The notes beneath the pieces are model-generated. The model saw nothing but the letters and a program-made list of their open reading frames with translations. It did not search any database and was not told where the DNA came from. Shown here one piece after another: positions 7,029 through 64,000 of a stretch of DNA of 64,000 nt. This DNA is from a virus: the IMG/VR virus record IMGVR_UViG_3300042878_002532, positions 1 through 64,000 of that record; one strand, given 5' to 3'. The position numbers and the translations under genes are program-made. Numbering within the stretch: position 1 is the first letter of the stretch; every line of letters starts with the position of its first letter.

Positions 7029-7039
7029 CTCTTTTTTTT
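7011..7039. terminator. Bidirectional terminator
   Basis: Nine-base stem AGAGTCAAG/CTTGACTCT with an A run before and T run after, between converging genes. Confidence 0.85.
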
Positions 7040-8658
7040 TATTTTTTATTTATAAGATTTTTAAACTTTTCAAATTTGGCAATAATCTTTTTGTTATCGT
7101 GATCAATCTGAATGTTGTTAGGTTCCATTGCTTTTCCGGCACCTGCCTCAACAAACTCATCTCTTGTAACATCTTTAGTATTACCTTCTTTGTCAGTTAT
7201 CTGATAGTCAAAGTTTTCGTTTGCCATTGGTTTTCCAAACTTATCTAATTTAGTAACATTTTCTGCACCGATTACTTTATTGTCCATCTCAGGTTCTCTA
7301 CCTTTTGATTCTGATGGATCTCCCCATTTTTGATTTAAAGTAAACTTAACTCCGGAAAGGTCATTGAATATTTTGTTTTTAAATAAGTCGATGAATCTAA
7401 GTCCTTGATAAGGAGCAACATCACATGTTCCAAAGATGTTTGAGATAGAACCGATACCACCGTGTCCACCAGAAACCGTAATCTCATCTTGACCGATTGT
7501 AGTGTCAGGGTCATGATATCCTAAATGTTGTTTGAAGTTTGTAAGTAAGCTTGTCATATAAACTCCTAAATCATCGATTGATTTACCATCTTTGTATAAA
7601 GGAAGATTTTCTGTTTGACCCATTTTTTTGTAAGCACATACTTGAAGAGTACCACCATATTGAAGTAATATGAATTTAGGTTCTGAATCAATCTTACCAT
7701 CTTTGAAGTCTCTTTCAACGATTGTTCTTGCTCTTAAAGCATTTGCCCAAGTTCCTGTTGGTACGAATACTAAATCTCCAAGTTTTAAATACCCGTCTAA
7801 TCTAAGTGCCCCACCTTTCCAGAACATACTGATAAGTTCTTGTTGAGAATTAAGTGTTTGTTTTGCACCAGTACCTCTTGTTCTTTTTTGCATCGTAGAA
7901 AGTCTCCATTCTGAATCTTTCATAAACTCTTTCTTACCATATTTAGTAGCGTTGTGCTCAGGGTAAAGTGCTTTCATTGTGTTAAAGATTGCATAGATAG
8001 AAGCATCTTTACAATTTGCAATAACTGCGATTAAAGTTTTTACATCCGATCTTTTTAAGAACTGATTAAAAGCTGCTCCAAATTCAAGTCTTTTCTTATC
8101 TGATTGTTTAATCTCTGCTAGATTAAAATCTAACAATCTTTGCCAATCAACACCATAGTCTTGGTATTTTGCAGCATCAATCATATCTATAACTGAAACA
8201 ATTAACTCATCTTGTGGAAGTCCTAATACAATACAAAGTGCTTCATATGCAGATGATGTTGCCAATTTTTTAACTGGTGAATCTTTATATTTGTCTAAAT
8301 CAGCAGCACTGAAAAGTCCGTGGTGGTCTAAGTAGTAATCTACTAACTCATCTCTTTCATCACCAGGCATGTTTGCGAAGTCAAGAACAATATTTATAAG
8401 TTTTGGATCAAGCGTAGTATATTTCCATCCTTCTGAATAATTTACAACACCGTACTTTACGATTTCGAATCCGTGGTCTAACAACCATTTCTTCATCTCG
8501 ATTGCACAGAAGATACCATCCATGTCATCGTGTGTATATAAAGCGACTTTCTTACCAATCTTTCCTTTTCCGATCCAATACTGCTCATCTGTAGAAGGAG
8601 TTCTAAGAGCTGCTTCCTCGTTGATATTGACCCAGTTGTTAAACTTTTTAATTCTCAT
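7039..8658 (-). CDS. Tagged DHH-family phosphoesterase
   Basis: A 539-residue DHH-superfamily phosphoesterase, the fold of RecJ and NrnA (oligonucleotide, nanoRNA or cyclic-dinucleotide cleavage). Metal motifs: THDDMDG at 42-48, a lone Asp in VLDFANM near 93 and the signature LDHHG at 110-114. A later SGGHGGIGSISN resembles the DHHA1 substrate loop. The N-terminus MRIKKFNNWVNINEE fits the capsid-targeting-like tag, so the enzyme may be packed in the head and injected. It is the last gene of a leftward operon with two other tagged proteins; its own late-like motif lies 20 nt upstream. The last 90 residues are polar and unassigned. Confidence 0.88.
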   Translation of the reverse strand: MRIKKFNNWVNINEEAALRTPSTDEQYWIGKGKIGKKVALYTHDDMDGIFCAIEMKKWLLDHGFEIVKYGVVNYSEGWKYTTLDPKLINIVLDFANMPGDERDELVDYYLDHHGLFSAADLDKYKDSPVKKLATSSAYEALCIVLGLPQDELIVSVIDMIDAAKYQDYGVDWQRLLDFNLAEIKQSDKKRLEFGAAFNQFLKRSDVKTLIAVIANCKDASIYAIFNTMKALYPEHNATKYGKKEFMKDSEWRLSTMQKRTRGTGAKQTLNSQQELISMFWKGGALRLDGYLKLGDLVFVPTGTWANALRARTIVERDFKDGKIDSEPKFILLQYGGTLQVCAYKKMGQTENLPLYKDGKSIDDLGVYMTSLLTNFKQHLGYHDPDTTIGQDEITVSGGHGGIGSISNIFGTCDVAPYQGLRFIDLFKNKIFNDLSGVKFTLNQKWGDPSESKGREPEMDNKVIGAENVTKLDKFGKPMANENFDYQITDKEGNTKDVTRDEFVEAGAGKAMEPNNIQIDHDNKKIIAKFEKFKNLINKK

Positions 8659-27636: not shown

Positions 27637-27638
27637 AA

Positions 27639-29459: not shown

Positions 29460-29470
29460 TATATATTAAA
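29460..29470 (-). promoter_or_regulatory. Late-promoter-like motif (long spacing)
   Basis: TTTAATATATA on the minus strand, 28 nt before the uvsW start at 29431. Confidence 0.5.
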
Positions 29471-29574
29471 AATCATTGATTGTTTAAAAACCCTTGTTTT
29501 TATTATTTTTTTGACGTTTTTAGTGGAGGGAAGAAAGTTTTGCTGATATATACTAAAAAATAAAAAGTAAAAGC

Positions 29575-29934
29575 ATGAAAAAGTTGATATCATTCTTTAA
29601 GAATCTTTTCGCTAAAGAAGAAGCGGTTGTTGAAGTTGCTCACAAAGTTGAGGAAGTTAAAGCAGAAGCAGTTCACGTAGTTGAAGAAGTTAAAGAAGTT
29701 GTTGAGAAGGTAAAAGAAATCGTAAAAGAAGCGCCTACTAAACAAATCGAAGAAAGATTGGCTGAAGTAGCTACAGAGAAAAAAGAAGAGCCAAAGGTTA
29801 CTGCAAAAGAAATCAAGGCTAAAGTAAGAAGACCTGCTGCACCTAAAGCAGTTGTTGAAGCTACTGAAGTTGAAGCTACTGAAGTTAAAAGAAAACCAAC
29901 CAGAAGAAAGCCTAAGGCTAAGAAAGCTGAATAA
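29575..29934 (+). CDS. Coiled-coil protein with basic tail
   Basis: A 119-residue protein. The first 14 residues (MKKLISFFKNLFAK) form an amphipathic helix. A long Val/Glu/Lys heptad-like stretch follows (KVEEVKAEAVHVVEEVKEVV), and the last 40 residues are rich in Lys, Arg, Ala and Pro (RKPTRRKPKAKKAE), like a histone H1 or TolA-type tail. It could bind DNA or membranes. A DNA-condensing role is only a guess. Weak late-like ATATATA upstream; strong terminator downstream. Confidence 0.8.
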   Translation: MKKLISFFKNLFAKEEAVVEVAHKVEEVKAEAVHVVEEVKEVVEKVKEIVKEAPTKQIEERLAEVATEKKEEPKVTAKEIKAKVRRPAAPKAVVEATEVEATEVKRKPTRRKPKAKKAE

Positions 29935-29951
29935 TTTTCTTTTAGAAATTT

Positions 29952-29980
29952 AAAAAGCCACTCAAATTGAGTGGCTTTTT
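29952..29980. terminator. Terminator, GCCACTC family
   Basis: Stem AAAAAGCCACTC/GAGTGGCTTTTT; one of several near-identical terminators in the window; works in both directions between converging genes. Confidence 0.9.
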
Positions 29981-29994
29981 TAGTGTTAGTATTT

Positions 29995-30648
29995 TTAGAA
30001 AGGCAGGTCGTGATTTTCTAAGTGTGTTTCTGGGTTGTAAATGTATAAAAATATTCTATCAATCTTATTAGGACTTTCTATACCATTTAGTTCAAACCAA
30101 GAATCTATGTTTGGTTTTGCTCCTTTGTAAAGAGTTTTTGGTAGCTTGCGGTCTCTTGAAAAACCATCGGAAGATATTGCTTCAAATATAAAGTGAAAAT
30201 CTGTATTATCAATCATTTCAAGCTTTGAGAAAGCATCCTTTATATCTTCTTTGACTTCTTCGATACTTTTATGTCTGAGTCCTTTCATCTTTATAATAAA
30301 CTCGCCGTTATTGTCGTTTGAATCTTCGTGTAGCTCATCCGTGTTGTCTATTAAGTCTCTTATACAATCTTTTATTGCATCCTCATCTGAGTCTATTCTA
30401 AACATTTTGAAGAAGTCTTCAAACGAATCTTCGTTTTTTACATTTCTCTGCCAATGGATCATGGAATCCGTGTTCATGCAAGAGATTAGATCCTTTAATC
30501 TTTTTCTAGTGTTAGAGGTGTATTTCTCGGATTGTAAAAGCTCTATAAGAGGTTTTACCTTTTCCCAATCTTCTGCAGATACCGTAGCATGTGGTATAAG
30601 TTCTTTATCCACATTAGATTCTGTTATTAGTTTTGAGAACTTTTTCAT
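29995..30648 (-). CDS. Tagged hypothetical protein
   Basis: A 217-residue acidic, helical protein. The ATG at 30648 is preferred over the one at 30654 because the latter overlaps the late-like promoter motif and the former gives the tag MKKFSKLITES. T4-type capsid targeting would cut after the Glu at position 10. The C-terminal region contains a strand pattern (RIFLYIYNPETHLEN). Function unknown. Confidence 0.78.
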   Translation of the reverse strand: MKKFSKLITESNVDKELIPHATVSAEDWEKVKPLIELLQSEKYTSNTRKRLKDLISCMNTDSMIHWQRNVKNEDSFEDFFKMFRIDSDEDAIKDCIRDLIDNTDELHEDSNDNNGEFIIKMKGLRHKSIEEVKEDIKDAFSKLEMIDNTDFHFIFEAISSDGFSRDRKLPKTLYKGAKPNIDSWFELNGIESPNKIDRIFLYIYNPETHLENHDLPF

Positions 30649-30653
30649 AAACA

Positions 30654-30664
30654 TATATATTAAA
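30654..30664 (-). promoter_or_regulatory. Late-promoter-like motif (short spacing)
   Basis: TTTAATATATA on the minus strand, 5 nt before the preferred start at 30648. Confidence 0.6.
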
Positions 30665-32234: not shown

Positions 32235-33290
32235 ATGATTAAAAAGTTTAATCAATACATAAAGGAGGACGTTGCAGGAGAAAAACAACTTCTGTATTAT
32301 GCGTTTGACTGGGATGACAATATATTGAGCATGCCAACGGTTATACACATGGACCATCTTATCGATGGTGACTGGGTTCCTGAGGATGTTTCTACCGCAG
32401 ACTTTGCAAAAGTAAGAGGTGATAGTGAGAACTGGAGAGTAATCAACGGTGATCCTGCTGCAGCTTTTTCTGAATTTAGAGATAGTGGACCAAGAGGTGA
32501 TGTTGCTTTCTTGGAAGATACTAAAAATGCAGTCTCTGCACAAAGATTTTCTCCAGCGTGGGAAGATTTCGTAGAGTGTTTAGTAAACGGATCTCTTTTC
32601 GCTATAATAACGGCGAGAGGACATGAAGCACCATCAATGAAAAAAGGAGTTGAGTGGATAATAGACAATGTTCTTTCTGAAGAACAACTATACGAAATGT
32701 ATAACAACCTATTGAAGTTTGCTTATTTATTCAGACATAACAAAGAGTATGATAGAATATTAAAAGGGCAACCATCTGCACATTCACTTGTTCAACTTTA
32801 TTTAGAAAATTGTGAGTTCGTGGGTGTTTCTGCACCATCAAGAGGTGGTTCACCATCTGATCCAGAACAAGCTAAAGAAGATGCACTTCTTCTTTTCATG
32901 GATAGAGTAAACAAATTTGCGGCAAGTGTTGGATATAAAGCCAAAGTTGGATTCTCAGATGATGACTTAGGTAATGTTAGTCATATAGAAAACCTTGCAG
33001 ACAACTTACACCACGAGCAGTTTCCAAACTTATTATTATTTGTGGTTAAAGGTACAAAATATCCTGAAGACATTACTAAGAAAGTAGTTACTTTTGACGA
33101 GTTCAGAGGTGAAATGAAAGAAAGTCAAGATCCTATGACGACAAGCACTATGTCTATGCAAACTCCTAACGCTGCTATGTCGGCTGGTTTAAATAGTAAA
33201 GACCCTTTTGTGACTAGAGCCATTGGTCAGTCAAAACTTTTAACAAAAATGTCTAAAAACACTTTTGGAAAAAGTAAAAAAAAAGATTAG
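32235..33290 (+). CDS. Tagged HAD-superfamily phosphatase-like protein
   Basis: A 351-residue protein opening with a textbook tag, MIKKFNQYIKED. The HAD motifs follow: motif I YAFDWDDNIL with the two Asp at 25 and 27, motif II Thr in FAIITARGHEA, and motif IV GFSDDDLGN. HAD enzymes use the first Asp as nucleophile on phosphate esters; the substrate is unknown. The last 70 residues are Ser/Thr/Met-rich and basic. If packed in the head it could act on host nucleotides or nucleic-acid ends right after injection. It shares a transcript with the acidic protein. Confidence 0.85.
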   Translation: MIKKFNQYIKEDVAGEKQLLYYAFDWDDNILSMPTVIHMDHLIDGDWVPEDVSTADFAKVRGDSENWRVINGDPAAAFSEFRDSGPRGDVAFLEDTKNAVSAQRFSPAWEDFVECLVNGSLFAIITARGHEAPSMKKGVEWIIDNVLSEEQLYEMYNNLLKFAYLFRHNKEYDRILKGQPSAHSLVQLYLENCEFVGVSAPSRGGSPSDPEQAKEDALLLFMDRVNKFAASVGYKAKVGFSDDDLGNVSHIENLADNLHHEQFPNLLLFVVKGTKYPEDITKKVVTFDEFRGEMKESQDPMTTSTMSMQTPNAAMSAGLNSKDPFVTRAIGQSKLLTKMSKNTFGKSKKKD

Positions 33291-33361: not shown

Positions 33362-35212
33362 ATGAAACTAAACAGATACTTAGACTTTATATCAGAAGGT
33401 ACCGGTAGTGGTAAAATGATGATATTCTACTCGGATGACCTGAGAGAGCTTTTCACACACATAGCGATGAGCGAGAGTTCCGCAAAAAATGTGGCAAGAG
33501 TACTTTTGGAAGTTGAAGACAACGACACCGTGAAAGACACTTATACTTTGATAGACAAAACCGACAAGAACGACATGATTTCGTATGTTCAGACAAGTAG
33601 GTTCTACAGAGAGTATCCTAACGGAATCTCGAGTCCGGATTTGGAAAAAGAAAGAGGTTACTCCATGAAGAGTAGCAAGTTCTGGAAAAGTGGAAGAACT
33701 CCTAACTACGGAATAGGAAGATGGGTAAGACACATATTCAACGACGTTCGTCAGACTCCTATAAAGAACGAAGATCTTGAGAGTTTTGTGAACGCCTACA
33801 AGTCTACCTACGATACAATGGCCAAACGTTCTGAAAAATTTAAATTGGTAAAAGGTGAGGATATAAGATACTGGTATTTAGAAGACAGATACGAAGAAGT
33901 GAGTGGACAGCTTGGAAACTCTTGTATGAGATACAAAAGATGTCAGTCATATCTGGATATCTATGTCGAGAATCCGGAATCGTGTAGTCTGCTTATATTG
34001 AAAGGTAATGATCCAGACAAGATAGCAGGACGTGCACTTATCTGGACTATACACGAAGGTCCAGGTGTTGCTGGAAGAAGGTTCATGGACAGGATCTACA
34101 CGATAAAGGACAGCGACAAGATTCTTTTTGAGGCATACGCGAAAGAGAACGATATTCTTAGATCACAATCTTATACGTACAAAATAAAGGTTAAGGAAGG
34201 TAGGTACGACTACTATCCTTATATGGACACGCTTACGTGCTATGATTATGAAAAAGGGATTCTATCTTCTTCTCTTGATGGCGAAGATATTTTAGGTCTA
34301 CAAAACACGGATGGAACCGCATCGGACAACGAAGGAAGAGTTTGGAGTGAGTATCACGGTGAGTATATAGACGAGGATGACGCCAGATATTGTGAAGACG
34401 TTGACGGTCCCGTGCACTATGAGAGCACGGTTTGGTTAGAATATTTAGACATATATGTTACCGATAATGCAGATACGGTTTATAGCGAATATTTTGATGG
34501 AAGCTACTATAGTGAAGATGCCGTTCGTTCGGAATGTATGGATGACTATCTAAAAGCAAACGATAGTGATGTTATAGAGATTAAAACTAGTGCGGATGGA
34601 GACACCGATTATTGTGTTTTAGATCGTAAGGACCTATATATTGAGGTAGATGACGAATATTACTATAGAAAGAATTATATATTAGATCCTTACACAGGTG
34701 AATATCATTTCGGTGATGAGAAGGTTGATGGTGTGAAATATATCAAATATTTAGAGAATAAGTTAGAAGAAGAACTTGAAGTAAAAGAGAAATATACTCT
34801 AGCAGGTGGAAAGTTTGATTTAGAAAAATATAGAACCGATCTTAAAAAGATGTTTGTCGAATATGTTCCTACCGATGACTTCATAAAAGAAGTGAAGACA
34901 AAGGGTGGTGATAATAGTTATTACTATCATTTACCTGGACTATATGCTTGGATAATAAGAGACCAGATGAATTATGGAACCATAAATGCAGGTTATCAAT
35001 CAAGTGCAGCATTGTCTAGCTACAAGAAACTTTTATTTGATATTTTGGAAGAGATGTCTGAAGAATTTGATAAAGAAAATATTAAATTATGGTACGATGA
35101 TAAGTTTTCACGCTCTTGGAATCTAAGATCCGTATTTAAAATATTTGACAATATAGACATCACTAAATTTCCTACGGAAATATACAAAAGAATATTCTTT
35201 TTTAACATATGA
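33362..35212 (+). CDS. Tagged large hypothetical protein with EY repeats
   Basis: A 616-residue protein opening MKLNRYLDFISEG, a close match to the T4 capsid-targeting sequence. Conserved-looking pieces are LGNSCMRYKRCQSYLDIYVE near 187-206, AGRALIWTI and FMDRIYTI. Residues about 325-400 hold several units around VWSEYHGEYIDEDDA / VYSEYFDGSYYSEDA, a Tyr/Glu/Asp repeat. The first half uses visibly more G/C-ending codons than the second. Function unknown. The next gene overlaps its end by 4 nt. Confidence 0.82.
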   Translation: MKLNRYLDFISEGTGSGKMMIFYSDDLRELFTHIAMSESSAKNVARVLLEVEDNDTVKDTYTLIDKTDKNDMISYVQTSRFYREYPNGISSPDLEKERGYSMKSSKFWKSGRTPNYGIGRWVRHIFNDVRQTPIKNEDLESFVNAYKSTYDTMAKRSEKFKLVKGEDIRYWYLEDRYEEVSGQLGNSCMRYKRCQSYLDIYVENPESCSLLILKGNDPDKIAGRALIWTIHEGPGVAGRRFMDRIYTIKDSDKILFEAYAKENDILRSQSYTYKIKVKEGRYDYYPYMDTLTCYDYEKGILSSSLDGEDILGLQNTDGTASDNEGRVWSEYHGEYIDEDDARYCEDVDGPVHYESTVWLEYLDIYVTDNADTVYSEYFDGSYYSEDAVRSECMDDYLKANDSDVIEIKTSADGDTDYCVLDRKDLYIEVDDEYYYRKNYILDPYTGEYHFGDEKVDGVKYIKYLENKLEEELEVKEKYTLAGGKFDLEKYRTDLKKMFVEYVPTDDFIKEVKTKGGDNSYYYHLPGLYAWIIRDQMNYGTINAGYQSSAALSSYKKLLFDILEEMSEEFDKENIKLWYDDKFSRSWNLRSVFKIFDNIDITKFPTEIYKRIFFFNI

Positions 35213-49808: not shown

Positions 49809-50168
49809 TTATAGGCTAAAATCTTCAAAGCCTTTTATGTTTTCATCATCTCTATGTCTAGCATCATGTTCTGAGTGAGATGATTCTGGTCCACCTAATA
49901 GTGGTTTTTCTTCGTGATGTTCTTCTTCATGCTCTTCTGAATGACCTGCAAGAAAGTTGAATACTTCTTCTACATCATCCTTAGATGTTGCAATGTGGTC
50001 TAATGCCCAGTTGTGGCCGTTTGTAAGCATAGCGTCAACTTCTGCTTCATCCATTTCTAACATCTCATCAACTAATCTTTTGATTGTTTTAAGATTACCA
50101 AAGAACATATAATTTTGAGGACCACCATCATGGTCTTCTTTAAATAGTTTAAATTTTTTGATTTCCAT
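49809..50168 (-). CDS. Tagged His/Glu-rich protein
   Basis: A 119-residue protein. The ATG at 50168 gives MEIKKFKLFKEDHDGG (tag-like) and leaves 11 nt after the PPK2 stop, whereas the longer reading overlaps PPK2. The second half is rich in His and Glu (HSEEHEEEHHEEKPLL, SSHSEHDARHRDD), which could bind metal ions. Function unknown. Confidence 0.78.
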   Translation of the reverse strand: MEIKKFKLFKEDHDGGPQNYMFFGNLKTIKRLVDEMLEMDEAEVDAMLTNGHNWALDHIATSKDDVEEVFNFLAGHSEEHEEEHHEEKPLLGGPESSHSEHDARHRDDENIKGFEDFSL

Positions 50169-50179: not shown

Positions 50180-51340
50180 TTATTTTAGAATGTTTACTAC
50201 TTCTGGGTAGTATTTGCATATATTTTGATTCTTTCCTTCATAAGGAATGGCTGAAAGTGCGTATCTCATAGCATTTAATCTTCCAATCTTTTTGTCGTTT
50301 GAGTTTATTATAACCCAAGGTGTAGTCCTACTTGATGTAAGGTTGAACATCTGATTTTTGTAGTGTCCGATTATCTCCCATTTATCAACAACTTTGGCGT
50401 CATTCGGTGAGAACTTCCAGTATTTCAAAGGACTTTGTTGTCTTAAATCGAATCTTTTTAGTTGTTTTTCTTTGGTAATAGAGAACCAGAACTTAATAAG
50501 GTGAAGACCTTGTTTCTTTATCATTTTCTCTTCCCAATCTACCACTTTTTCCATGAAGTCTTTGTACTGATCTTCTGTACAATAACCCATTGCTGGTTCT
50601 ACTACTGCTCTGTTGTACCAAGATCTATCAAAGAATACTATTTCTCCTTCTTTAGGCATGTGTGCCTCATATCTAGCGAACCAGTTTTCTTTCTCTTCTG
50701 GAGTTGGAAGTCCTAAAGCAACTACTCTGAATCCTTTTGGATTTAAGTATTCGACGAATCTTTTTATTGTAGAACCTTTTCCTGCAGAGTCTCGTCCTTC
50801 GAATACTATAGCTATTCTCTTACCGTTCTTCAGAACCCATTCTTGAAGTTTCATAAGCTCTACTTGTATCTGATATTTCTCTGATTCGTATTCTTTTCTA
50901 GTAAGTATAGATCTCTCACCTTCGAACTCATCAAAGTGTTGAGCCTGAGCACCAGTTTTAATAACTGATATCCTGTTATCTATAGATTTGGCGAAGTCAT
51001 CAAACTGTTTTCTTATGTTACTTTTGGTATCTCTTCTTTTGAGTTCCATAAGTTGATTTATCTTCCTAAGAAGTGTGTCGATGTTTAAGTCTTGTACGAC
51101 CTCTGGAGTGAACTCGTTGTTAAGTTCTCTCATTATTATATCTACTTCGATTTTTTCAAAGGATTTGTATTCTACTTTGTTTGTTTGAAAGTTGTAGACA
51201 ATATTGTCCAATATAGAACTTTTATACTCTCCAAGTCTTGTCAGTATGTTCCTTTTTATCTGTTCGATATTTTCGGGATCCATCTTGTCAATCCTAAGCT
51301 CTTCTTTTATAAAATCCAAGAATTTACGTAAATTCTTCAT
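50180..51340 (-). CDS. ppk2: Tagged polyphosphate kinase 2
   Basis: A 386-residue protein from the ATG at 51340. The first residues, MKNLRKFLDFIKEE, are one of the best matches to the T4 capsid-targeting sequence. Residues 145-370 form a complete PPK2: Walker A EGRDSAGKGS at 181-190, Walker B FFDRSWYNR at 236-244, the lid PLKYWKFSPND at 304-314, and the C-terminal DDK-like INSNDKKIGRLN. PPK2 uses polyphosphate to phosphorylate nucleoside mono- or diphosphates. The 145-residue N-terminal extension beyond the usual PPK2 is helical and unassigned. It heads a leftward operon with an L,D-transpeptidase-like enzyme and two tagged proteins. Confidence 0.93.
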   Translation of the reverse strand: MKNLRKFLDFIKEELRIDKMDPENIEQIKRNILTRLGEYKSSILDNIVYNFQTNKVEYKSFEKIEVDIIMRELNNEFTPEVVQDLNIDTLLRKINQLMELKRRDTKSNIRKQFDDFAKSIDNRISVIKTGAQAQHFDEFEGERSILTRKEYESEKYQIQVELMKLQEWVLKNGKRIAIVFEGRDSAGKGSTIKRFVEYLNPKGFRVVALGLPTPEEKENWFARYEAHMPKEGEIVFFDRSWYNRAVVEPAMGYCTEDQYKDFMEKVVDWEEKMIKKQGLHLIKFWFSITKEKQLKRFDLRQQSPLKYWKFSPNDAKVVDKWEIIGHYKNQMFNLTSSRTTPWVIINSNDKKIGRLNAMRYALSAIPYEGKNQNICKYYPEVVNILK

Positions 51341-51360: not shown

Positions 51361-51371
51361 TATATATTAAA
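51361..51371 (-). promoter_or_regulatory. Late-promoter-like motif (long spacing)
   Basis: TTTAATATATA on the minus strand, 20 nt before the PPK2 start at 51340. Confidence 0.58.
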
Positions 51372-55212: not shown

Positions 55213-55833
55213 TTATTTATTGCTTTGATTTTTCAAAAAATCTAATTCCTCTTGTGTTATTTTACTCATTCCGTGTTTACTAATCTTATCTAAGATTGAA
55301 TCTACATCGAAACGGTCTTCGTTTTCTTCTACTATTCTTTCAATCTCCGTAGTTTCTTTCTTCATCATTAGGTTGTTCAGTTCCGCTTCTGGGTTTACAC
55401 TTTCAAAATCTTTTAACTTAGATTCTAATTCCTCTCTAGAGATTGTCACACCCAATACTTCTACAACATCATCAATCTGTTTACCATATTGTTCATGTAT
55501 ATTACTTATTATATTTTCATTTAACTTTTTATCGATTGTCTCAGATGTATAGATACATTTATTTTCTTTGAAAATACAAACAATACTTTTATCCATAAGA
55601 TAAACTACGTTTACAATATTGTAGTCTTTCAGTTTGGTATCTAACATTACTGTGTGATTTACCCTACTAACAAATACCGCTTGACCTTTTTTAATATTAG
55701 ATAATATCTCTTCGAATTGTAATATCATATCTTTCAGAAGCTTTTGGTCTTTGAAATGTTCTTTTATTTTGTCTACAATCTTCGCATATAGGAAGCCTAA
55801 TATAAACATAAGTGTTAACGTCATTATACTCAT
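55213..55833 (-). CDS. Membrane protein with C-terminal DILDKIS module
   Basis: A 206-residue protein: an N-terminal membrane segment (SIMTLTLMFILGFLYAKIV), a central beta-rich domain and, in the last 30 residues, SILDKISKHGMSKITQEELD. The latter is the same module as in the genes at 38941 and 59912. In Bacteroidetes this module ends membrane and other proteins. Function unknown. It overlaps the RlaP-like gene by 4 nt. Confidence 0.8.
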   Translation of the reverse strand: MSIMTLTLMFILGFLYAKIVDKIKEHFKDQKLLKDMILQFEEILSNIKKGQAVFVSRVNHTVMLDTKLKDYNIVNVVYLMDKSIVCIFKENKCIYTSETIDKKLNENIISNIHEQYGKQIDDVVEVLGVTISREELESKLKDFESVNPEAELNNLMMKKETTEIERIVEENEDRFDVDSILDKISKHGMSKITQEELDFLKNQSNK

Positions 55834-57020
55834 AGTGTATTATATATATTTTTTCTGATTTTGATTAGTATTTCATTGACAAAAGATTCATCTACTTTGT
55901 CTGGAAGGTTTGAGTTCGCGAACAGCTCGTCGATTTCTACGATTTCTGCCTCTACTTGATCAATAAGAGTCTGTAGGTCAATCTTTCCTTTTCTGATGTC
56001 GATTAGTTCTTGAGCATTTTCTCTACGAACGTTGATACCAAGACCCAATGCGATTTCTCTTGCCATATCCATAAGTCTTCGGGAGTGCATCATGTTCTTA
56101 CCGTCGATTTTTTGACCGTGAGATTTAACATCAACCCATCTTGCATCATTTTTATTTACTAACCAATCTTCATAAGACTTATAATCTTTACAGTGTTCGG
56201 AATAACCATCTTTATTATAAACAATATTACAGATTGGAGTTTCATCTTTTGGAATAGAAGAAAGTCTAAGAGCATTTGACTCAGCAACGTTATCACCTTC
56301 ACCAGTCTTTACAAGTCCTTTATAACCAAATCCCATTGAGTGACCTTCTTCTTTTCTCCATGCTTTAGCTTTTTCCCTCAAGTCTTCTGGAATCCTTTCA
56401 TTAAAACAGTTGTTAGCATCTGTATCAAAATAAACAGCATATGAATCTCTAGCATTTGGTACATTTACAACTCCACAGAACTTTTCTTCAAACCCCTTAT
56501 CAGAGTTCCATTTTTTCCAAGGAATAGATTTTGGTCCTTCAATCACATAAACAAAGTCGAGTACATCTTTACGAGTTACTTTATCTTTTTCCCAGTTTTG
56601 TTTTTTGTTTTGACCTTTTGCTTTTTGGATTTGCATTTTACCATAACCACCAAAAGATTTGGCACACACTTTGGTGATGAATTTATCTCTGTTATCTAAG
56701 ATAAGGTCGAAGATAGGATCTTTATAGATGATACAATCTTCTGGTGTGTTTAGAAGTTCTAATACGGTTGGATTATTGCTAGAAAGTAGTTGTAGAAATC
56801 TTTTGATTTCATAGATTACGGTATCATTTGTATCGTCGTTGATTTGTTCTTTGTAGTTGAATCCAAAGATGTCTTCTTGTGATTGAATGAATACACCTGC
56901 GTAGTCTGTATCGGATGTTTCAATGTTTGTTCCATATGCATGTGATCCTCTAATAACGAGTAGTAGTGGTTTTGCGTTTGGAGACTTTTCTTCGATGAAT
57001 CTAAATAGTTCTTCTTTCAT
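55830..57020 (-). CDS. RlaP-like nucleotidyltransferase
   Basis: A 396-residue polymerase-beta-superfamily nucleotidyltransferase of the RlaP/YcgL-like group. The catalytic motif is GSHAYGTNIETSDTDYAG at 25-42, with GS and the D-x-D pair. C-terminal helices follow (FGGYGKMQIQKAKGQNKK, and MMHSRRLMDMAREIALG, where His and Arg recur in the family). RlaP proteins are associated with RNA ligases in RNA repair. Upstream is a host-like TACATTTG box. It heads a four-gene operon. Confidence 0.87.
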   Translation of the reverse strand: MKEELFRFIEEKSPNAKPLLLVIRGSHAYGTNIETSDTDYAGVFIQSQEDIFGFNYKEQINDDTNDTVIYEIKRFLQLLSSNNPTVLELLNTPEDCIIYKDPIFDLILDNRDKFITKVCAKSFGGYGKMQIQKAKGQNKKQNWEKDKVTRKDVLDFVYVIEGPKSIPWKKWNSDKGFEEKFCGVVNVPNARDSYAVYFDTDANNCFNERIPEDLREKAKAWRKEEGHSMGFGYKGLVKTGEGDNVAESNALRLSSIPKDETPICNIVYNKDGYSEHCKDYKSYEDWLVNKNDARWVDVKSHGQKIDGKNMMHSRRLMDMAREIALGLGINVRRENAQELIDIRKGKIDLQTLIDQVEAEIVEIDELFANSNLPDKVDESFVNEILIKIRKNIYNTL

Positions 57021-57115: not shown

Positions 57116-58264
57116 ATGTCTACACAGAGTTATAATACGGGCAACACAATATATGATAGTAATGGTGGTAATCAAAACGTTGTTGCGGACTATGCTTATA
57201 TTTCAGATTTACTTGCCAATATACCTGATAATAATACAAACTTAATTGATGCAAAAGACGTTAGGGATGCGGTTTGGACTTTATGGAATAGAATTGAAGA
57301 TATAAATATAGGTTTATCCTCTTCTGGAATAAACATATATGCAACTGGATCAGGAACATTTTCGGCAGATTTAAGATATGATAGAACACGTCTATCTAGT
57401 GCAGCACCTGTCGGTGGTGTTCCAACTGGATCAACATTTAGTGGAACTCTTCAGGATGTTTTTGATAGAATATTTTATCCATATACAGCACCAACGTGTG
57501 CTTTGAGTGGTGGTAGTACTAGACAATTTGGTTCGAATACTTCGGTAACATTGAGTTTCACTCTTAATAAATTTGAAAAGCCTGTGACTGCAGTATCTAT
57601 ACAACTTCTTTCTGGAACATCACCGATAACACCAATACCTTCTGTGATAACTCAGAACAATACAAATCCTGCTAGTTTTGGTCCAAGTACTTTGTCTACC
57701 ACTCCAGCATCTATTGTTACTTATGCTACACATAGTGCAACACCAACATCACTCAGTGAATCTAATACATACAATCTTACTATAGGTGATGGTCAAGCTT
57801 CCGCTGGTGCGTCAACTACCGTTACTTGGATGAACTATTTATATTATGGTACTTTAAATTTGAGTACACTTTCGGGTAATCCGAATCCTGATTTAACCGT
57901 AAGGCCCGATGGTAGCAATAGTGCAGCCGTTGCATCATCCATAGTGCAGATAACTGCAGCAATAGATAGCAATACCGTTAAGGCGACTGCCAATACGTAT
58001 GATAGAGTTTTGGTATCAAAAGTTTTTGCAACCAGTAGAACACTTAGTTTGGCGGACTATGCTGCCGGTAATAACTATCTTTTCTTTGCTTGGCCTACAT
58101 TGTTTGGAACACCTACTTTTAAAATAAATGGATTGTCGAATAGTGCATTTACTAAAGTTAAAAGTGGTTTTGTATTCACAAATGAAAATGGATTCTCAGG
58201 AGTAAATTATGATGTTTGGATAAGTAATACTGTCTATGGAACATCTACAATAAATATAAGTTAA
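57116..58264 (+). CDS. Tail fibre or neck-type structural protein
   Basis: A 382-residue Ser/Thr/Asn-rich protein with low charge, typical of phage fibres. N-terminal residues 1-75 contain a helix (NLIDAKDVRDAVWTLWNRI) that may attach it; the rest is beta-rich with Ig-like features (SNTSVTLSFTLNKFEKPVTA) and repeated TYNLTIGDG-type strands. It shares the late promoter with the next gene, 19 nt downstream. Confidence 0.7.
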   Translation: MSTQSYNTGNTIYDSNGGNQNVVADYAYISDLLANIPDNNTNLIDAKDVRDAVWTLWNRIEDINIGLSSSGINIYATGSGTFSADLRYDRTRLSSAAPVGGVPTGSTFSGTLQDVFDRIFYPYTAPTCALSGGSTRQFGSNTSVTLSFTLNKFEKPVTAVSIQLLSGTSPITPIPSVITQNNTNPASFGPSTLSTTPASIVTYATHSATPTSLSESNTYNLTIGDGQASAGASTTVTWMNYLYYGTLNLSTLSGNPNPDLTVRPDGSNSAAVASSIVQITAAIDSNTVKATANTYDRVLVSKVFATSRTLSLADYAAGNNYLFFAWPTLFGTPTFKINGLSNSAFTKVKSGFVFTNENGFSGVNYDVWISNTVYGTSTINIS

Positions 58265-58283
58265 AAAAATAAGATAAAGATAT

Positions 58284-59627
58284 ATGCCAACTCAAAACGT
58301 AGGTACACTAGTAGGGGCTGCGATAAGGCCAATAGATGATGCAATGCCGATTGCTTCTGCATTTTCTTTTGAAATAAATGGAGGACATCACCAAGTTGCC
58401 ACTTTGGTTGCTAGAGATGCCATAATTGTTCAAAGAAGACAATGGGGGATGTTGTGTACGGTTTATAACGATTCAACTTCTACAAACAATGCAACATACC
58501 AACTTAAATATGGACATAACAATGGTAGTACCAATACTATGGATAACGCAAACTGGGTAGTTTTCTCAGGTGGTGGCGGTGCCGGTGGAAGTGCAAACTG
58601 GGTAGATCCTGTTCTTTCTGTTACAATGAGTACTCCTGGAATTTCGGCAGACGGAGATAGATATTTGGTTGGATTGGATGAGACTGCTTCGTTATCTGGT
58701 AGTTTTGCCACACTTACTAATACTGGATATGTTGGAAACTTAGTTGGTGGATATATTGCTGAATATAACTCTAGTATAAGCAATTGGGTAACTACATTAC
58801 CAACCGATGGGATGACTCTAAGAGTCAATGATCAAGACAACTCATTTTATAGATATGAAGGAACTTATTCTACTGGTCAATGGTACAAAGAAAGAGTCAA
58901 TCAAGTAAGATATCTTTCTGCGATTAGTGCAAATGGTGTTGATTATACTATAACCACTAATGATTTTTTTGAATACTCTACTGAAGTTGTATATTTAGTT
59001 CAGTTTGGAACTGCTAACTCAGGAAGTACAGCTTCATTAAATATAAATGGTTTAGGTCAAACAAACATGAGAAAACAGAACGCACTTGGACTTTCTGATT
59101 TTTCTAAAAACGATTTGAATATTGTTGGAGTTTACAATCTTATATATGATGGAACTATTTTTAGAGTTGATCAACAAGCCGGAGAAGGTGGTGCTTTTAC
59201 TTTAAAGTATAGGATTATCGATTCTGAAAGAATTGAAGTTCCTGCATATTCTGAATATTTACTTTATGGTGATTTAGAAGTAAATGGTATATTAGATATC
59301 AATGCTACTGGAAAAGTTGTTTTGGTAAATGGTGGATTGAATGTAAATGGTGGTACGGTTTCTAACTCAGGAAATATAGAATTTGTAACCGTTCCTCAGG
59401 CAGCATCGACTGGAGTTGCTGGATATGTTCCAAAATGGGCATCTACTACTGCAATATCTGCAACTTCTTCTATACAGGATAGTGGAACAAAAGTTACTTT
59501 GAGCTCTGTTTTGAATTTGACACCAAGTAGTCAACCTGCAACTGCTGCGGCTGGAGATATATACTTTGATAGTGGTACTAATAAGTTAAGAGCATATGAT
59601 GGTTCTGGTTGGAACGATCTTTGGTAA
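58284..59627 (+). CDS. Fibre/adhesin-like structural protein
   Basis: A 447-residue protein rich in Gly, Ser, Thr and Asn. A central beta-strand pattern around GDLEVNGILDINATGKVVLV looks like a short beta helix. The end (AAGDIYFDSGTNKLRAYDGS) is a motif common at the C-termini of tail fibres. It follows the other fibre-like gene directly and is probably a receptor-contacting protein. Confidence 0.75.
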   Translation: MPTQNVGTLVGAAIRPIDDAMPIASAFSFEINGGHHQVATLVARDAIIVQRRQWGMLCTVYNDSTSTNNATYQLKYGHNNGSTNTMDNANWVVFSGGGGAGGSANWVDPVLSVTMSTPGISADGDRYLVGLDETASLSGSFATLTNTGYVGNLVGGYIAEYNSSISNWVTTLPTDGMTLRVNDQDNSFYRYEGTYSTGQWYKERVNQVRYLSAISANGVDYTITTNDFFEYSTEVVYLVQFGTANSGSTASLNINGLGQTNMRKQNALGLSDFSKNDLNIVGVYNLIYDGTIFRVDQQAGEGGAFTLKYRIIDSERIEVPAYSEYLLYGDLEVNGILDINATGKVVLVNGGLNVNGGTVSNSGNIEFVTVPQAASTGVAGYVPKWASTTAISATSSIQDSGTKVTLSSVLNLTPSSQPATAAAGDIYFDSGTNKLRAYDGSGWNDLW

Positions 59628-59629
59628 TA

Positions 59630-59660
59630 AAAAAAGTCCTTCATTTGAAGGACTTTTTTT
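59630..59660. terminator. Bidirectional terminator
   Basis: AAAAAGTCCTTC/GAAGGACTTTTT between converging genes. Confidence 0.87.
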
Positions 59661-59919
59661 ATGATATTATTTTAATAATATTTTCTAAGGAAAAACCATC
59701 TAATGGTTTGCCACCATTTTTAAGGTAGTCTCCATAGATGTTGTTATAGTCATCTATAGTATAGAACTTTGAATCTAAGTCACAAAATATAACTGTAGTA
59801 TCGTGTGCATTCACCGTTTTATTCTGAAGTCCTGTCTCTCCGTATCCTGGTCCCATAGGTCCAATCAGTTCGGTTCCGTTTACTTCTTCTTTTATGAAAT
59901 CTTCAAATCTTTTAATCAT
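59659..59919 (-). CDS. Tagged small hypothetical protein
   Basis: An 86-residue protein. Of four in-frame starts (59928, 59922, 59919) the ATG at 59919 gives MIKRFEDFIKEE, an excellent tag. The rest (VFCDLDSKFYTIDDYNNIYG-like acidic region) is unrecognised. It overlaps the upstream gene end by a few bases. Confidence 0.75.
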   Translation of the reverse strand: MIKRFEDFIKEEVNGTELIGPMGPGYGETGLQNKTVNAHDTTVIFCDLDSKFYTIDDYNNIYGDYLKNGGKPLDGFSLENIIKIIS

Positions 59920-60376
59920 CATCCCCATTACTTGCTTCTATTTTTTCAAAGTATTCGTCTTGTTCTTGAAGAGAATATTCGTCTTTTTTGATATTGTATA
60001 TTATGTTGTACAAAAATCTGTCATCTAATCTATGTTTTTCACCACCTTTCATTGTTATGGTACATACATCGTCTTCAAAAACATTTTCAATCTTACTTAT
60101 TTGAAGTCCAAACTTTCCATATTTGTCGTGAAGATTACATATAACTATTCTTTTTTCCTTTAAAAGGTCGTCTATTCTAGAATATGTCGAATTCTTTGAT
60201 AGATACATGAAATCTTTCATGTAGTCCTCTCTTGTATGCTGATAGAGGTTCAGGAAATTTATTTCCTTATCAGAAAGCTTCTTGCTGCTGTTTATCTTAT
60301 CTAAGATACGGTTCAGCTCTATTTCTTTAATAGATTCGCCGAGAAGGTAATACTTTATGAGTTTTTTTATTTTCAT
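59912..60376 (-). CDS. Protein with DILDKI module (weakly tagged)
   Basis: A 154-residue acidic protein from the ATG at 60376 (MKIKKLIKYYLLGES, a weak tag match); the upstream ATG at 60397 overlaps the late-like motif. Residues 20-44 (ELNRILDKINSSKKLSDKEI) are the DILDKIS-type module, following the N-terminal segment directly as in the 38941 gene. Function unknown. Confidence 0.75.
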   Translation of the reverse strand: MKIKKLIKYYLLGESIKEIELNRILDKINSSKKLSDKEINFLNLYQHTREDYMKDFMYLSKNSTYSRIDDLLKEKRIVICNLHDKYGKFGLQISKIENVFEDDVCTITMKGGEKHRLDDRFLYNIIYNIKKDEYSLQEQDEYFEKIEASNGDDD

Positions 60377-60396
60377 GTCGCTATTATTTTCTATCA

Positions 60397-60407
60397 TATA
60401 TATTAAG
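60397..60407 (-). promoter_or_regulatory. Late-promoter-like motif (long spacing)
   Basis: CTTAATATATA on the minus strand, 20 nt before the start at 60376. Confidence 0.5.
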
Positions 60408-60419
60408 AAGTGTAAACGA

Positions 60420-60431
60420 TTTTTATATATA
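60420..60431 (+). promoter_or_regulatory. Variant late-promoter-like motif
   Basis: TTTTTATATATA, 25 nt before the tape-measure-like start at 60457. Confidence 0.35.
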
Positions 60432-60456
60432 GTTTATACTAAAATTATATAATCTA

Positions 60457-63400
60457 ATGGATCAAAAGTTACTTAGTGCATTAAACAATTTATCCGAAGG
60501 CCTGGAGGCCATCGCAGAGGCACTTAAAGAAAGTGGGGGTAGTGGTAATAAATCTGCCACTACTTCCGCACTACAAGGTGGAAGTTTTACTAAAGAGATT
60601 CAGGAAATAAATGTTGGTGTCAAGCAATTGATGAAAGATTCTAAACAGATTCTGAAGAACCAAGAAACTATAATAAGTTTATCTAAGAAGTCTGCAGGTG
60701 ATAAAAAGAGTGACTTTGAAAAGGCGGGTGGTGATAAGAAGAAAGAAAGCCAGATTAAAAAAGGTATTGGAACTATATTGCTTATTGCAGTTGCTGTACT
60801 TGCCATAGGAATGGCATTTAAACTTGTTGGTAAAATTGATTTTCTATCGGTTGTAGGTTTAGGATTAGCCATGTTGATAATGTCTGAGGCGTTTGTAAAA
60901 ATAGCCAAAACAAAAATGACTATAAAAGAGGCTGCTATTGCATCACTTGCAATGGTTATGATGGCAATTGCCGTTACTCTTTCATCATGGGTATTAAAAA
61001 TGATTAGTCCAATCGGAATAGCACAGTTACTAACGGGTATTGCAATAACTGCAATGTTTTATATTATGGCTCCTAAATTCGCGATGTTATTGAATGCTGT
61101 TAATAATAGCTTCAAAAAAGTGAGTTATGCAGACATAATCAAAGTTACTGTAATCTTAGTTGCTATGTCTGTGGCGATAACTCTTTCATCATGGGTATTG
61201 AGATTAATCACACCATTGAGTCTTGGACAGATTATAACGGGTATTGGTATAACCGTGATGTTCTATGTTGTGTCTAACTTTTTACCTAAGCTTGCCATTT
61301 CGGTAATCGCGGTTAGTAAAATAATGAGTAAAAAAGACTTGGCGTTGTTGCCAATCATGTTGGTTGCATTTTCTATTGCGATAACACTTTCGTCATGGAT
61401 ATTGAGAATGATTGCACCAATGTCGTTTGGACAAATAATAACAGGGATTGCAATAACTGCGATGTTCTGGATTGTATCTAACTTCTTGCCTAAGCTTGCA
61501 CTTGCTGTAATCGCGGTTAGTAAAATAATGAGTAAAAAGGACTTAGTTTTACTACCACTTATGATGGTTGCATTTTCTATCGCGATTATGCTTTCTTCTT
61601 TAATATTAAAATTGATTCAACCACTATCGTTTGGTCAGATAATAACAACAATAGTTGTTACTGCAGTATTTTGGGCAATTTCGATGTTTTTAACAGATAT
61701 CGCAATTGGTGTTATAATGGTTGATAAAATATTGGGTAAAAATAAAATATGGATGATTCCATTGGTTTATGTTGCGATATCTGCTGCCATAATGGTTGCC
61801 GGTTTCCTTTTCTCGATGACTCCAGAATTGGGTTGGAAACAAATGGTTGGTATTCTATTGATTGGTTTGATATTTGCTGGATTGGCTTATGTTATGCCTG
61901 ATATGGCGATTGGTCTTGTTATCATGGAGAAGGCCTTGGGTAAAGGTAAAATGTGGTTGATTCCTTTGGTTTATGTTGCGATTGCTGCTGCCATAATGGT
62001 TTCGTCTCACATTCTTAATGCTAGTGCTGAAATACCTTGGATGAAGCTACTTAACATATTGGTATTCTCTGTTGTATTAGTGATTGCAGTTGCTTTAATC
62101 GGATTACTATCTTTACTTTTAGTCAAAGTTATTGGATTAACCACTATACTAAAAGGATCTCTTTGTATTGTGGCTATAGCCACTTCAATAATGTTGGCAT
62201 CATGGCTTCTTACTAAGGGTAGTTATAAAAAATATCCTGATTGGAAATGGGTACTTTTTGCAGCATTGGCAATTGTGGTATTTGGTTTAATAGGATGGTT
62301 ATTGATGAAGATTGGTAGTCTCAGTACGTATATAAAGGGTGGTATTGCCATATTGGCGGTTGCTACTACTATTATGTTGACTTCGCATATAATAAATGCT
62401 GGAAACTATAAAAAATATCCTAAACTGGCTTGGTCTCTAGGTGTTGGTGCTGCATTGTTGGCATTTGGTTTGGCTGCGGTTGGATTGGGGTTAGTGATGA
62501 TGTTTGATGGTGGTTTATCTCTTTTATTAGGTTCTCTTGGTATTTTAGGAGTATCTGCAACTATAGTTGCTGCCTCACACATACTTGCTCAGGGTAAATA
62601 TGGTAAATTTCCTTCACTTGGATGGTCTGTTTCTGTTGGTTTAGCATTGGCTGCCTTTGGTGGTGGAATGGTTCTTTTGGGTGGTCTTATAATAGCATCT
62701 TTTGGTATTGGTGGTCTTATGCTTGCAGCAGGTGCTAAGGCTGTTTTGAAGGTCGCAGAAACTATAGTAAAGTCATCACACATATTAGCCAAAGGAAATT
62801 GGAAAAAGGGTCCTACGGTTGAATGGGCATCGGGAGTTGCAATTGCACTTGGTGCTTTTGCACCAATCTATAGTATGTTGTTGGAAAACGCACCTGGACT
62901 TTTCAGTGCGGGTGGTGGTGTTGGTCCAGACGATTTTGCAAGGGCCATAGTAACCGTTAGTAAGGGTATAATGACTGCAGCGGCTGAATTCGCCTCTCCT
63001 AAGAATAAAAGTGTTTGGAAAGGTGGACCTACACAAGCTTGGGCGACTGGTGTTGGTATAGCATTAGGTGCATTCGCCCCAGTTTATATGATGTTGCTTA
63101 ACAATGCACCTGGTATATTCAGTAAGGGTGGTGGTGTCGGACCTGAAGATTTTGCAAAGGCAGTTATGACGGTTTCTAGAGGTATAATAGCAGCTGCTGG
63201 AGTATTTGCGTTAAATACCGCACAATTCGAAGAAGGTAAATATCCTTCTGTTAAATGGGGTCAAGGTGTAGGTGCTGCACTTAATGCCTTTGCTCCTGTA
63301 TTTACCGCGTTGAGTAAAGATACTGGTTGGTTTACATCGGGTGATGAGGTTATAACCAACATGGTAAGTGGTGTCATTAGACTAGCGGGTGCCATCGTCA

Positions 63401-64000
63401 CAGTTGCACAAATATTCGAATGGGCTAAGATGAAGTGGGATTCAGCTCCTAGTAAAAATTGGTCATGGAATGTCGGAGTTGCCGTTAGGTCATATGCAAA
63501 ATTGGCTTCTGATATAAGTAAAAATACGGACTTTTTTGGTATAGGATTGTCTTTGCCTGTTAAAATCGTATCTTCAATTATTTCTGTAGGACATATTATA
63601 CAAAAAAACAAAAAGGCACTAACAAGTTATTTGAATCCTGCATTTGTGCCTATTTTGGCAGTAAGTGTTAGGGGTTATGTTAGGTTAACTGACTTTGTTG
63701 CAAAAAGTGCTGGTATGTTAATGAACGAAAGTGGTGTTAGAACCGTTGCTGTTCAGATGGCCACTACTGCCAAAATATTAGAAAAAAACAAAAAGTATTT
63801 CTCTTATTTGATTCCGAGAAACTTTATAGCCAATTTGGCACCTAACTTATTAGGGTATGCTACAATGGCAAGGGCTTTGGAGAAGATGATGACGATTACC
63901 GAAAAGAAATTCATACCTTTAAGTGCATTGGGTGGAACCGACGTTAGTTATAAGACTACTAGACCTGCAGATATTTCTATTGTCAATAGAGTTGCTGCAC
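60457..64000 (+). CDS. Tape-measure-like protein with hydrophobic repeats (partial)
   Basis: Open from the ATG at 60457 to the window edge (1181 codons, no stop). Residues 1-105 are polar and helical. From there the protein is a long series of hydrophobic helices. Family 1 repeats of about 68 residues (61000-61700) contain ITLSSWVLRMI, then SFGQIITGIAITAMFY and VSKIMSKKDL. Family 2 repeats (62200-63500) contain a HI(L/I)xxGxYxKxP turn, a Trp, then GVGxALxAFAP. Such proteins set tail length and often make a pore in the inner membrane. It lies after the fibre genes. The pattern is unlike a coiled-coil tape measure, so a membrane or ejection protein is the alternative. Confidence 0.78.
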   Translation, partial: MDQKLLSALNNLSEGLEAIAEALKESGGSGNKSATTSALQGGSFTKEIQEINVGVKQLMKDSKQILKNQETIISLSKKSAGDKKSDFEKAGGDKKKESQIKKGIGTILLIAVAVLAIGMAFKLVGKIDFLSVVGLGLAMLIMSEAFVKIAKTKMTIKEAAIASLAMVMMAIAVTLSSWVLKMISPIGIAQLLTGIAITAMFYIMAPKFAMLLNAVNNSFKKVSYADIIKVTVILVAMSVAITLSSWVLRLITPLSLGQIITGIGITVMFYVVSNFLPKLAISVIAVSKIMSKKDLALLPIMLVAFSIAITLSSWILRMIAPMSFGQIITGIAITAMFWIVSNFLPKLALAVIAVSKIMSKKDLVLLPLMMVAFSIAIMLSSLILKLIQPLSFGQIITTIVVTAVFWAISMFLTDIAIGVIMVDKILGKNKIWMIPLVYVAISAAIMVAGFLFSMTPELGWKQMVGILLIGLIFAGLAYVMPDMAIGLVIMEKALGKGKMWLIPLVYVAIAAAIMVSSHILNASAEIPWMKLLNILVFSVVLVIAVALIGLLSLLLVKVIGLTTILKGSLCIVAIATSIMLASWLLTKGSYKKYPDWKWVLFAALAIVVFGLIGWLLMKIGSLSTYIKGGIAILAVATTIMLTSHIINAGNYKKYPKLAWSLGVGAALLAFGLAAVGLGLVMMFDGGLSLLLGSLGILGVSATIVAASHILAQGKYGKFPSLGWSVSVGLALAAFGGGMVLLGGLIIASFGIGGLMLAAGAKAVLKVAETIVKSSHILAKGNWKKGPTVEWASGVAIALGAFAPIYSMLLENAPGLFSAGGGVGPDDFARAIVTVSKGIMTAAAEFASPKNKSVWKGGPTQAWATGVGIALGAFAPVYMMLLNNAPGIFSKGGGVGPEDFAKAVMTVSRGIIAAAGVFALNTAQFEEGKYPSVKWGQGVGAALNAFAPVFTALSKDTGWFTSGDEVITNMVSGVIRLAGAIVTVAQIFEWAKMKWDSAPSKNWSWNVGVAVRSYAKLASDISKNTDFFGIGLSLPVKIVSSIISVGHIIQKNKKALTSYLNPAFVPILAVSVRGYVRLTDFVAKSAGMLMNESGVRTVAVQMATTAKILEKNKKYFSYLIPRNFIANLAPNLLGYATMARALEKMMTITEKKFIPLSALGGTDVSYKTTRPADISIVNRVAA
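61020..61700 (+). repeat. Tandem repeats of about 204 nt in tape-measure-like gene
   Basis: Four hydrophobic units; DNA identity is high between 61309 and 61338 and between 61513 and 61542 (the VSKIMSKKDL coding block). Confidence 0.85.
62380..63300 (+). repeat. Second family of tandem hydrophobic repeats
   Basis: Diverged units coding a K-x-P, Trp, then G-V-G-x-A-L-x-A-F-x-P pattern, spaced roughly 180-240 nt. Confidence 0.75.

What the first reader, a model, noticed from the sequence alone, without database searches (positions are those of the whole stretch)
50180..51340. Polyphosphate kinase 2 carrying the packaging tag
A complete PPK2 (Walker A, Walker B, lid) with a 145-residue N-terminal extension starting with one of the best tag matches. 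If injected, it could turn host polyphosphate into nucleoside triphosphates at the very start of infection, or remove polyphosphate used in stress defence. I know of no described virion-packaged polyphosphate kinase.
Basis: partly seen in the sequence, partly recalled or inferred. Interest (0 to 1): 0.85.

Follow-up and report, generated by a model that had tools for sequence, protein, structure and literature searches.

The report
Phage polyphosphate kinase with capsid-targeting tag
A huge bacterial virus makes, late in infection, an enzyme that can move phosphate between polyphosphate and nucleotides; its first 14 residues match the repeat of the virus's own head scaffold, so it is probably carried inside the virus particle and injected into the next cell, which no paper we could search describes.

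Summary
Window 50180-51340 (-) encodes a complete PPK2 of the PA0141 (class I) type (Pfam 1e-75; TIGR03707 above cut-off; AlphaFold model superposes on Francisella PPK2 at 1.4 A). It has a folded 145-residue N-terminal extension that begins with a disordered tag, MKNLRKFLDFIKEE. The tag is not chance: about 100-150 of 931 proteins in the relative LR745206 (634 kb, Mahaphage clade) start with such a tag; about 2 are expected. New evidence links it to the head. The phage's T4-type prohead protease is fused to a scaffold of 12 tandem repeats (NIAYSEYIAENLDK) that hold the same pattern, as do T4's capsid-targeting sequence (YQEFIAE|A) and T4's gp23 cleavage site. PPK2 orthologues keep the tag (17 of 23 exact; 0 of 71 bacterial PPK2) and a TAATATATA promoter shared with head and tail genes (late by inference). 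PPK2 is common in phages (348 IMG/VR contigs) and forms an almost purely phage clade. Best reading: a late-made, capsid-targeted, probably injected PPK2. Packaging, cleavage, injection and activity are inferred, not shown. Virus-encoded PPKs are known as auxiliary metabolic genes; a packaged one was not found.

The parts
50180..51340 (-). PPK2 gene, 386 aa, ATG start
51299..51340 (-). N-terminal tag, residues 1-14 (MKNLRKFLDFIKEE); predicted prohead-protease site after E13 or E14
   Evidence: tag statistics; kept in orthologues; pLDDT below 50 at residues 2-14
50906..51298 (-). N-terminal extension, residues 15-145; helical, folded from about residue 22; residues from about 83 on shared with a second phage lineage; not matched by nearly all bacterial PPK2 hits
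50225..50902 (-). PPK2 catalytic domain, residues 147-372
   Evidence: PF03976; TIGR03707; Foldseek to 5ll0/5llf
50774..50797 (-). Walker A GRDSAGKG, residues 182-189
   Evidence: invariant except position 185 in 47 homologues
50609..50641 (-). Walker B region, residues 234-244 (IVFFDRSWYNR); D238 aligns with D117 of Francisella PPK2
   Evidence: 5llf is the D117N mutant
50402..50455 (-). lid region, residues 296-313 (RFDLRQQSPLKYWKFSPN)
   Evidence: invariant R296, F297, R300, W308, K309, S311, P312, N313
51361..51369 (-). TAATATATA promoter-like element, beginning 29 bases before the ATG, in the 40-bp gap behind the upstream gene
   Evidence: 40 copies in the 113-kb record against 3.5 expected; before baseplate, sheath-like and protease-scaffold genes
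49809..50168 (-). next gene downstream, also tagged (MEIKKFKLFKED)
   Evidence: homologue follows PPK2 in LR756502
48467..49195 (-). tagged membrane-type protein (MKHLNNFESFSINE|Q), similar to the capsid-protein propeptide EYAEFHSINE|N
59659..59922 (-). another tagged protein (MMIKRFEDFIKEE)
33362..35212 (+). another tagged protein (MKLNRYLDFISE|G), with the same promoter-like element
32235..33290 (+). another tagged protein (MIKKFNQYIKED)
7039..8658 (-). another tagged protein (MRIKKFNNWVNINEE), with the same promoter-like element

Best explanation
This is a phage class I-type polyphosphate kinase 2 that works as an internal head protein. It is made late, from a promoter shared with head and tail genes. 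Its first 13-14 residues imitate the repeat unit of the phage's own scaffold (Y-x-x-Y-I-A-E), so it joins the prohead core. The T4 gp21-type protease then cuts after the tag's Glu. The mature enzyme stays in the head with the DNA and enters the next host cell, where it moves phosphate from the host's polyphosphate to NDPs (ADP/GDP to ATP/GTP) before any phage gene is expressed. Shown by sequence or model: PPK2 family and fold, intact motifs, tag, its conservation, the scaffold/CTS match, the shared promoter-like element. Inferred: late timing, packaging, cleavage, injection, direction of catalysis and benefit.
For: PPK2 identity. Tag enrichment. The pattern [FYW]xx[FYW][ILVM]xE, close to the one first written from the tags, hits the protease-scaffold 11 times out of 94 hits in 197,924 aa of LR745206, and 11 of 29 in the own record; the repeats also occur in LR756501 and LR756502. 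Gp21-type protease: weak Pfam S77 hits but PHROG 'head maturation protease' E=1.6e-29; gp23-type capsid protein. T4 IPIII YQEFIAE|ASV and gp23 FGSFLTE|A match the pattern; T4 biology in PMC9958956 and PMC3012670. PPK2 tag kept: 17 of 23 exact, 0 of 71 bacterial, 1.5% background. Tag disordered, rest folded, mean pLDDT 88.8. Promoter element: tagged 63/150 against untagged 90/781, p=7e-17; 19 of 25 PPK2 orthologues. Catalytic domain nearly exclusive to a phage clade.
Against: No virion proteomics was found for these uncultured phages. A class I PPK2 is oligomeric (background knowledge) and would have to pass the tail tube, probably unfolded. More than 100 tagged proteins is far more than T4 packages. 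Some tagged candidates match DNA primase or polymerase families, so the looser tag patterns include errors or proteins with another destination. Polyphosphate levels in the unknown Bacteroidetes host are unknown, and PPK2 reactions are reversible.
Confidence: 0.6

Rival explanations
1. Ordinary auxiliary metabolic gene: PPK2 works in the infected cell during replication (nucleotide supply or polyphosphate storage), and its N-terminus is incidental.
For: Virus-encoded ppk genes are read this way in the literature (PMC13188868). The catalytic domain needs no tag.
Against: The tag is kept at the N-terminus while the rest of the extension diverges. The gene carries a promoter-like element shared with head and tail genes. 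The 124 untagged mid-size proteins scanned hold the housekeeping enzymes (tRNA synthetases, thymidylate synthase, IMPDH).
Confidence: 0.13
2. The tag is an address for something other than the head (membrane, a replication compartment, or a late assembly site), and PPK2 acts there, for example feeding ATP to DNA packaging.
For: A very large number of proteins carry it. It is predicted as an N-terminal helix that could be amphipathic.
Against: The same pattern repeats in the protease-scaffold protein, a variant lies in the capsid-protein propeptide, and it matches T4's proven capsid-targeting sequence.
Confidence: 0.15
3. PPK2 is packaged, but its job is to consume host polyphosphate or to restore NTPs drained by a nucleotide-depleting defence, rather than general NTP supply.
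For: Other tagged proteins in LR745206 look like early counter-defence or RNA-repair functions: SMODS-associated NUDIX, Acb1-like (weak), T4 RNA ligase 1 type, CCA/polyA polymerase.
Against: No direct evidence on substrate or target; this differs from the best explanation only in the purpose.
Confidence: 0.25

Closest known systems
T4 internal proteins IPI-IPIII and Alt with the capsid-targeting sequence (CTS) and gp21 protease
   Same: Short N-terminal peptide with the same aromatic-xx-aromatic-I-x-E pattern as IPIII; gp21-type protease and gp23-type capsid protein in the same phage; cargo fused behind the peptide.
   Different: T4 carries a handful of such proteins, none a PPK2. Here about a hundred or more proteins are tagged, protease and scaffold are one protein, and the tag matches the scaffold's 14-residue tandem repeat; the T4 scaffold gp22 gave no match to the pattern.
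Class I PPK2 (Francisella tularensis 5ll0/4yeg, Sinorhizobium 3czq/6dzg; TIGR03707)
   Same: Fold, Walker A and B, lid, 46% identity, rmsd 1.4 A; score above the TIGR03707 cut-off.
   Different: Tagged, folded N-terminal extension; catalytic domain in a phage clade apart from bacterial ones.
Virus-encoded polyphosphate kinases reported as auxiliary metabolic genes (PMC13188868; Li et al. 2025 Water Res, cited there)
   Same: PPK gene on a viral contig.
   Different: Those are read as boosting host polyphosphate accumulation during infection; no packaging signal is mentioned in the passages read.
Ejection proteins of giant phages such as SPN3US and phiKZ (PMC5694885)
   Same: Propeptides cut by a prohead protease after Glu; many proteins in the head.
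   Different: Other cleavage motif (AxE/SxE) and mostly long propeptides; no PPK2 among the passages read.

Membership tests
PPK2 (PF03976), PA0141-type / class I | PPK2 domain above curated cut-offs | tested here: met
   PF03976 254.6 bits vs 22.3; TIGR03707 304.9 vs 301.8
PPK2 (PF03976), PA0141-type / class I | Walker A, Walker B Asp and lid residues | tested here: met
   invariant or nearly so in 47 homologues; D238 aligns with Francisella D117
PPK2 (PF03976), PA0141-type / class I | class I fold | tested here: met
   best Foldseek matches are Francisella and Sinorhizobium PPK2, 6dzg being labelled class I
PPK2 (PF03976), PA0141-type / class I | polyphosphate-dependent phosphorylation of ADP/GDP | not testable with these tools
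   needs an enzyme assay
T4-type CTS-bearing internal head protein | short N-terminal peptide ending in [hydrophobic]xE | tested here: met
   MKNLRKFLDFIKE|E against T4 IPIII MKTYQEFIAE|A
T4-type CTS-bearing internal head protein | gp21-type protease in the same genome | tested here: met
   PHROG head maturation protease E=1.6e-29; Pfam S77 hit below its cut-off
T4-type CTS-bearing internal head protein | same motif in core or capsid precursors | tested here: met
   12 scaffold repeats, 11 exact matches; the capsid-protein propeptide holds a variant
T4-type CTS-bearing internal head protein | expressed with head genes | tested here: inconclusive
   shared TAATATATA element, no transcript data
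T4-type CTS-bearing internal head protein | present in virions, tag removed | not testable with these tools
   needs virion mass spectrometry

The most novel reading that the evidence does not exclude
Huge Bacteroidetes phages run a general head-loading system: cargo proteins carry a one-repeat copy of the phage's tandem-repeat scaffold as an address, so that a hundred or so proteins, among them a polyphosphate kinase that powers the first minutes of infection from host polyphosphate, are loaded into the head, trimmed and injected.
Probability: 0.4. Interest if true: 0.92.

Novelty: new variant of a known kind. Interest (0 to 1): 0.78.

Why it matters
If true, a phage brings its own energy enzyme and can draw on host polyphosphate before making any protein, which would be a new use of PPK2 and of virion cargo. 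It also bears on an open question: a 2023 review says the mechanisms that localise certain proteins in the T4 scaffolding core 'remain mysterious' (PMC9958956). Here the address tag and the scaffold repeat share one motif, which makes a scaffold-mimicry mechanism directly testable, and it would let one predict the injected protein set of uncultured huge phages. It also cautions against reading every viral ppk gene as an in-cell metabolic gene.

Tried and rejected
A position-specific score built from the scaffold repeats alone was too narrow to be useful (15 N-terminal against 8 internal matches); the pattern-based test was kept. Folding the protein without an alignment gave a poor model (pLDDT 42.7) and was not used. 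A weak thymidylate-kinase match of the extension was set aside as chance, since it covers residues 27-139, outside the P-loop. The first alignment could not be handed to the structure tool because it held rows from annotated records. The second-lineage leader (LLTEVERI...) is only moderately enriched in its genome (25 against about 4-5 expected) and its TATTTATA element is hardly over-represented genome-wide (100 against 80); both are reported as weak support only.

Full report
1. The observation. The ORF at 50180-51340 (-) is a 386-aa protein with an ATG start. Pfam PPK2 covers residues 147-372 (E=1.1e-75), and NCBIfam TIGR03707 (PPK2, PA0141 type) is passed at 304.9 bits against a cut-off of 301.8. 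With 47 phage homologues as alignment, AlphaFold2 gives mean pLDDT 88.8; residues 2-14 are below 50 and the rest, including the helical extension from about residue 22, is well folded. Foldseek puts it on Francisella PPK2 (rmsd 1.3-1.5 A, 46% identity).

2. Where it comes from. The window is part of a 113,293-base virus record. The nearest relatives among annotated phage records are LR745206 (634 kb, 67% identical PPK2), LR756502 (642 kb, 64%) and LR756501 (735 kb, 42%), with conserved neighbours in the first two. Record sizes match the largest genomes of the Mahaphage clade, predicted to infect Bacteroidetes (PMC7162821).

3. The tag. Patterns written from the window's N-termini were counted in LR745206. 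They start 26 and 103 of 931 called proteins (two overlapping classes), against about 1-2 expected from internal methionines (1.3 and 2.2) and from shuffled N-termini (1.2 and 2.6). A looser union gives 150, with some errors. Gene calls are simple longest-ORF calls, so numbers are approximate.

4. What the tag is. The gp21-type protease gene (own record 110172-112274, L011:6172-8274; PHROG head maturation protease E=1.6e-29; weak S77 hits) continues into a scaffold-like part with tandem 14-residue repeats, NIAYSEYIAENLDK. The pattern [FYW]xx[FYW][ILVM]xE, close to the tag class-1 pattern, hits this protein 11 times; the whole LR745206 proteome has 94 hits in 197,924 aa. LR756501 and LR756502 have the same architecture. 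The capsid-protein propeptide carries MKKWSPVLEN and EYAEFHSINEN, close to the window's tag MKHLNNFESFSINEQ. In T4, read from its own sequence, IPIII starts MKTYQEFIAE|ASV and gp23 has FGSFLTE|A at residues 59-65; both match the pattern. T4's CTS sends foreign proteins into the prohead, and gp21 cuts N-terminal peptides off the internal proteins (PMC9958956; PMC3012670). So the tag is most simply a T4-type capsid-targeting sequence that copies the scaffold repeat.

5. The tag on PPK2. In the Mahaphage-type set, 17 of 23 PPK2 proteins match the strict motif within the first 22 residues, and most of the others have near variants. Examples: MRNLYKFIDFIKEE, MLKRFSNFIREE, MIQNFNNFINEE, and MISNYDNFMNES in the 42%-identical LR756501 protein. 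None of 71 bacterial PPK2 proteins has it; the background for internal methionines is 1.5%. Nearly all bacterial matches align only from about residue 120-150. A quick tree puts 48 phage sequences apart from 46 bacterial ones, with one long-branch Verrucomicrobia MAG inside the phage part; the bacterial set was drawn from the 80 most similar loci, so deeper sampling could change details.

6. Promoter. A TAATATATA element occurs 40 times in the own record against 3.5 expected. It lies before the baseplate gene (17385-19103, Phage_base_V), large tail-type genes, a sheath-like gene, a UvsW-like helicase and the protease-scaffold gene. In LR745206 it precedes 63 of 150 tagged and 90 of 781 untagged genes (p=7e-17). 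PPK2 has it in the 40-bp gap before its ATG, and 19 of 25 orthologues have it; the other six have TTATATATA. Late timing is inferred from the company it keeps, not from transcripts.

7. Other phages. A profile scan found 348 IMG/VR contigs with relatives, 80 kept. A second group, in which the contigs examined carry clear T4-type gp21 and gp23 genes, shares the extension from about residue 83 but starts with another leader, such as MRSLLTEVERIRQMIGIPLNE. In its 293-kb representative, leaders of that type are moderately enriched (25 against 4.3). One member is fused to a phage tail lysozyme (E=5.5e-13); two others are long multi-domain proteins with DUF4314.

8. Company. Among 133 tagged LR745206 proteins, Pfam finds PPK2, SMODS-associated NUDIX, polyA/CCA polymerase, T4 RNA ligase 1, NFACT-R, M15 peptidase, 2'-5' RNA ligase and a weak Acb1. 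Among 124 untagged mid-size proteins it finds 71 families at 1e-10, including tRNA synthetases, thymidylate synthase, topoisomerase and IMPDH. The sets differ in protein length, so this is indicative only.

9. Novelty. Virus-encoded ppk1 and ppk2 are reported as auxiliary metabolic genes (PMC13188868). Searches of the held library found no packaged PPK and no scaffold-repeat address tag; the library lacks most subscription papers.

10. Verdict. PPK2 identity is about certain (0.97, judgement). Head targeting is likely (about 0.8). Injection is plausible (about 0.6). NTP supply at the start of infection is the preferred role but open (about 0.4).

Noticed in passing
L021:19435-19686 (LR745206 460435-460686): An 83-aa protein made largely of four scaffold-type repeats (NYEDYIAESLEKNISYSEYISENL...), next to a DnaJ gene: a possible second, minimal scaffold or decoy.
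   Followed up: partly
L018:46824-47435; L022:26201-27373; other members of alignment A2: Tagged proteins of LR745206 include a SMODS-associated NUDIX, a CCA/polyA polymerase, a T4 RNA ligase 1 type and a weak Acb1: possibly an injected counter-defence and RNA-repair kit.
   Followed up: partly
L118:5815-7797: PPK2 fused in one ORF to a phage tail lysozyme domain (Phage_lysozyme2, 5.5e-13).
   Followed up: partly
L073:4864-7329 and L098:4285-7341: PPK2 near the end of 822- and 1018-aa proteins that begin with DUF4314.
   Followed up: partly
L139-L153 (293-kb contig): Another common leader in T4-like phages: MKKVVRLTESDLVRIVKRVI..., MKYLITESQIDKVIFKYL; the [LI]TE may be a prohead-protease site.
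   Followed up: partly
window 17385-30654 and 57116-64000; record 64001-113293: TAATATATA promoter-like element before many large tail-type and head genes (40 copies against 3.5 expected).
   Followed up: yes
LR745206, many tagged proteins (for example L014:9658-10086, L021:5618-6850): Many tagged proteins share a following stretch like 'DMFVDISDMGFDV', which looks like a large paralogous family.
   Followed up: no
window 55830-57020: RlaP-type RNA-repair protein (2.2e-18) whose N-terminus MKEELFRFIEE resembles the tag.
   Followed up: no
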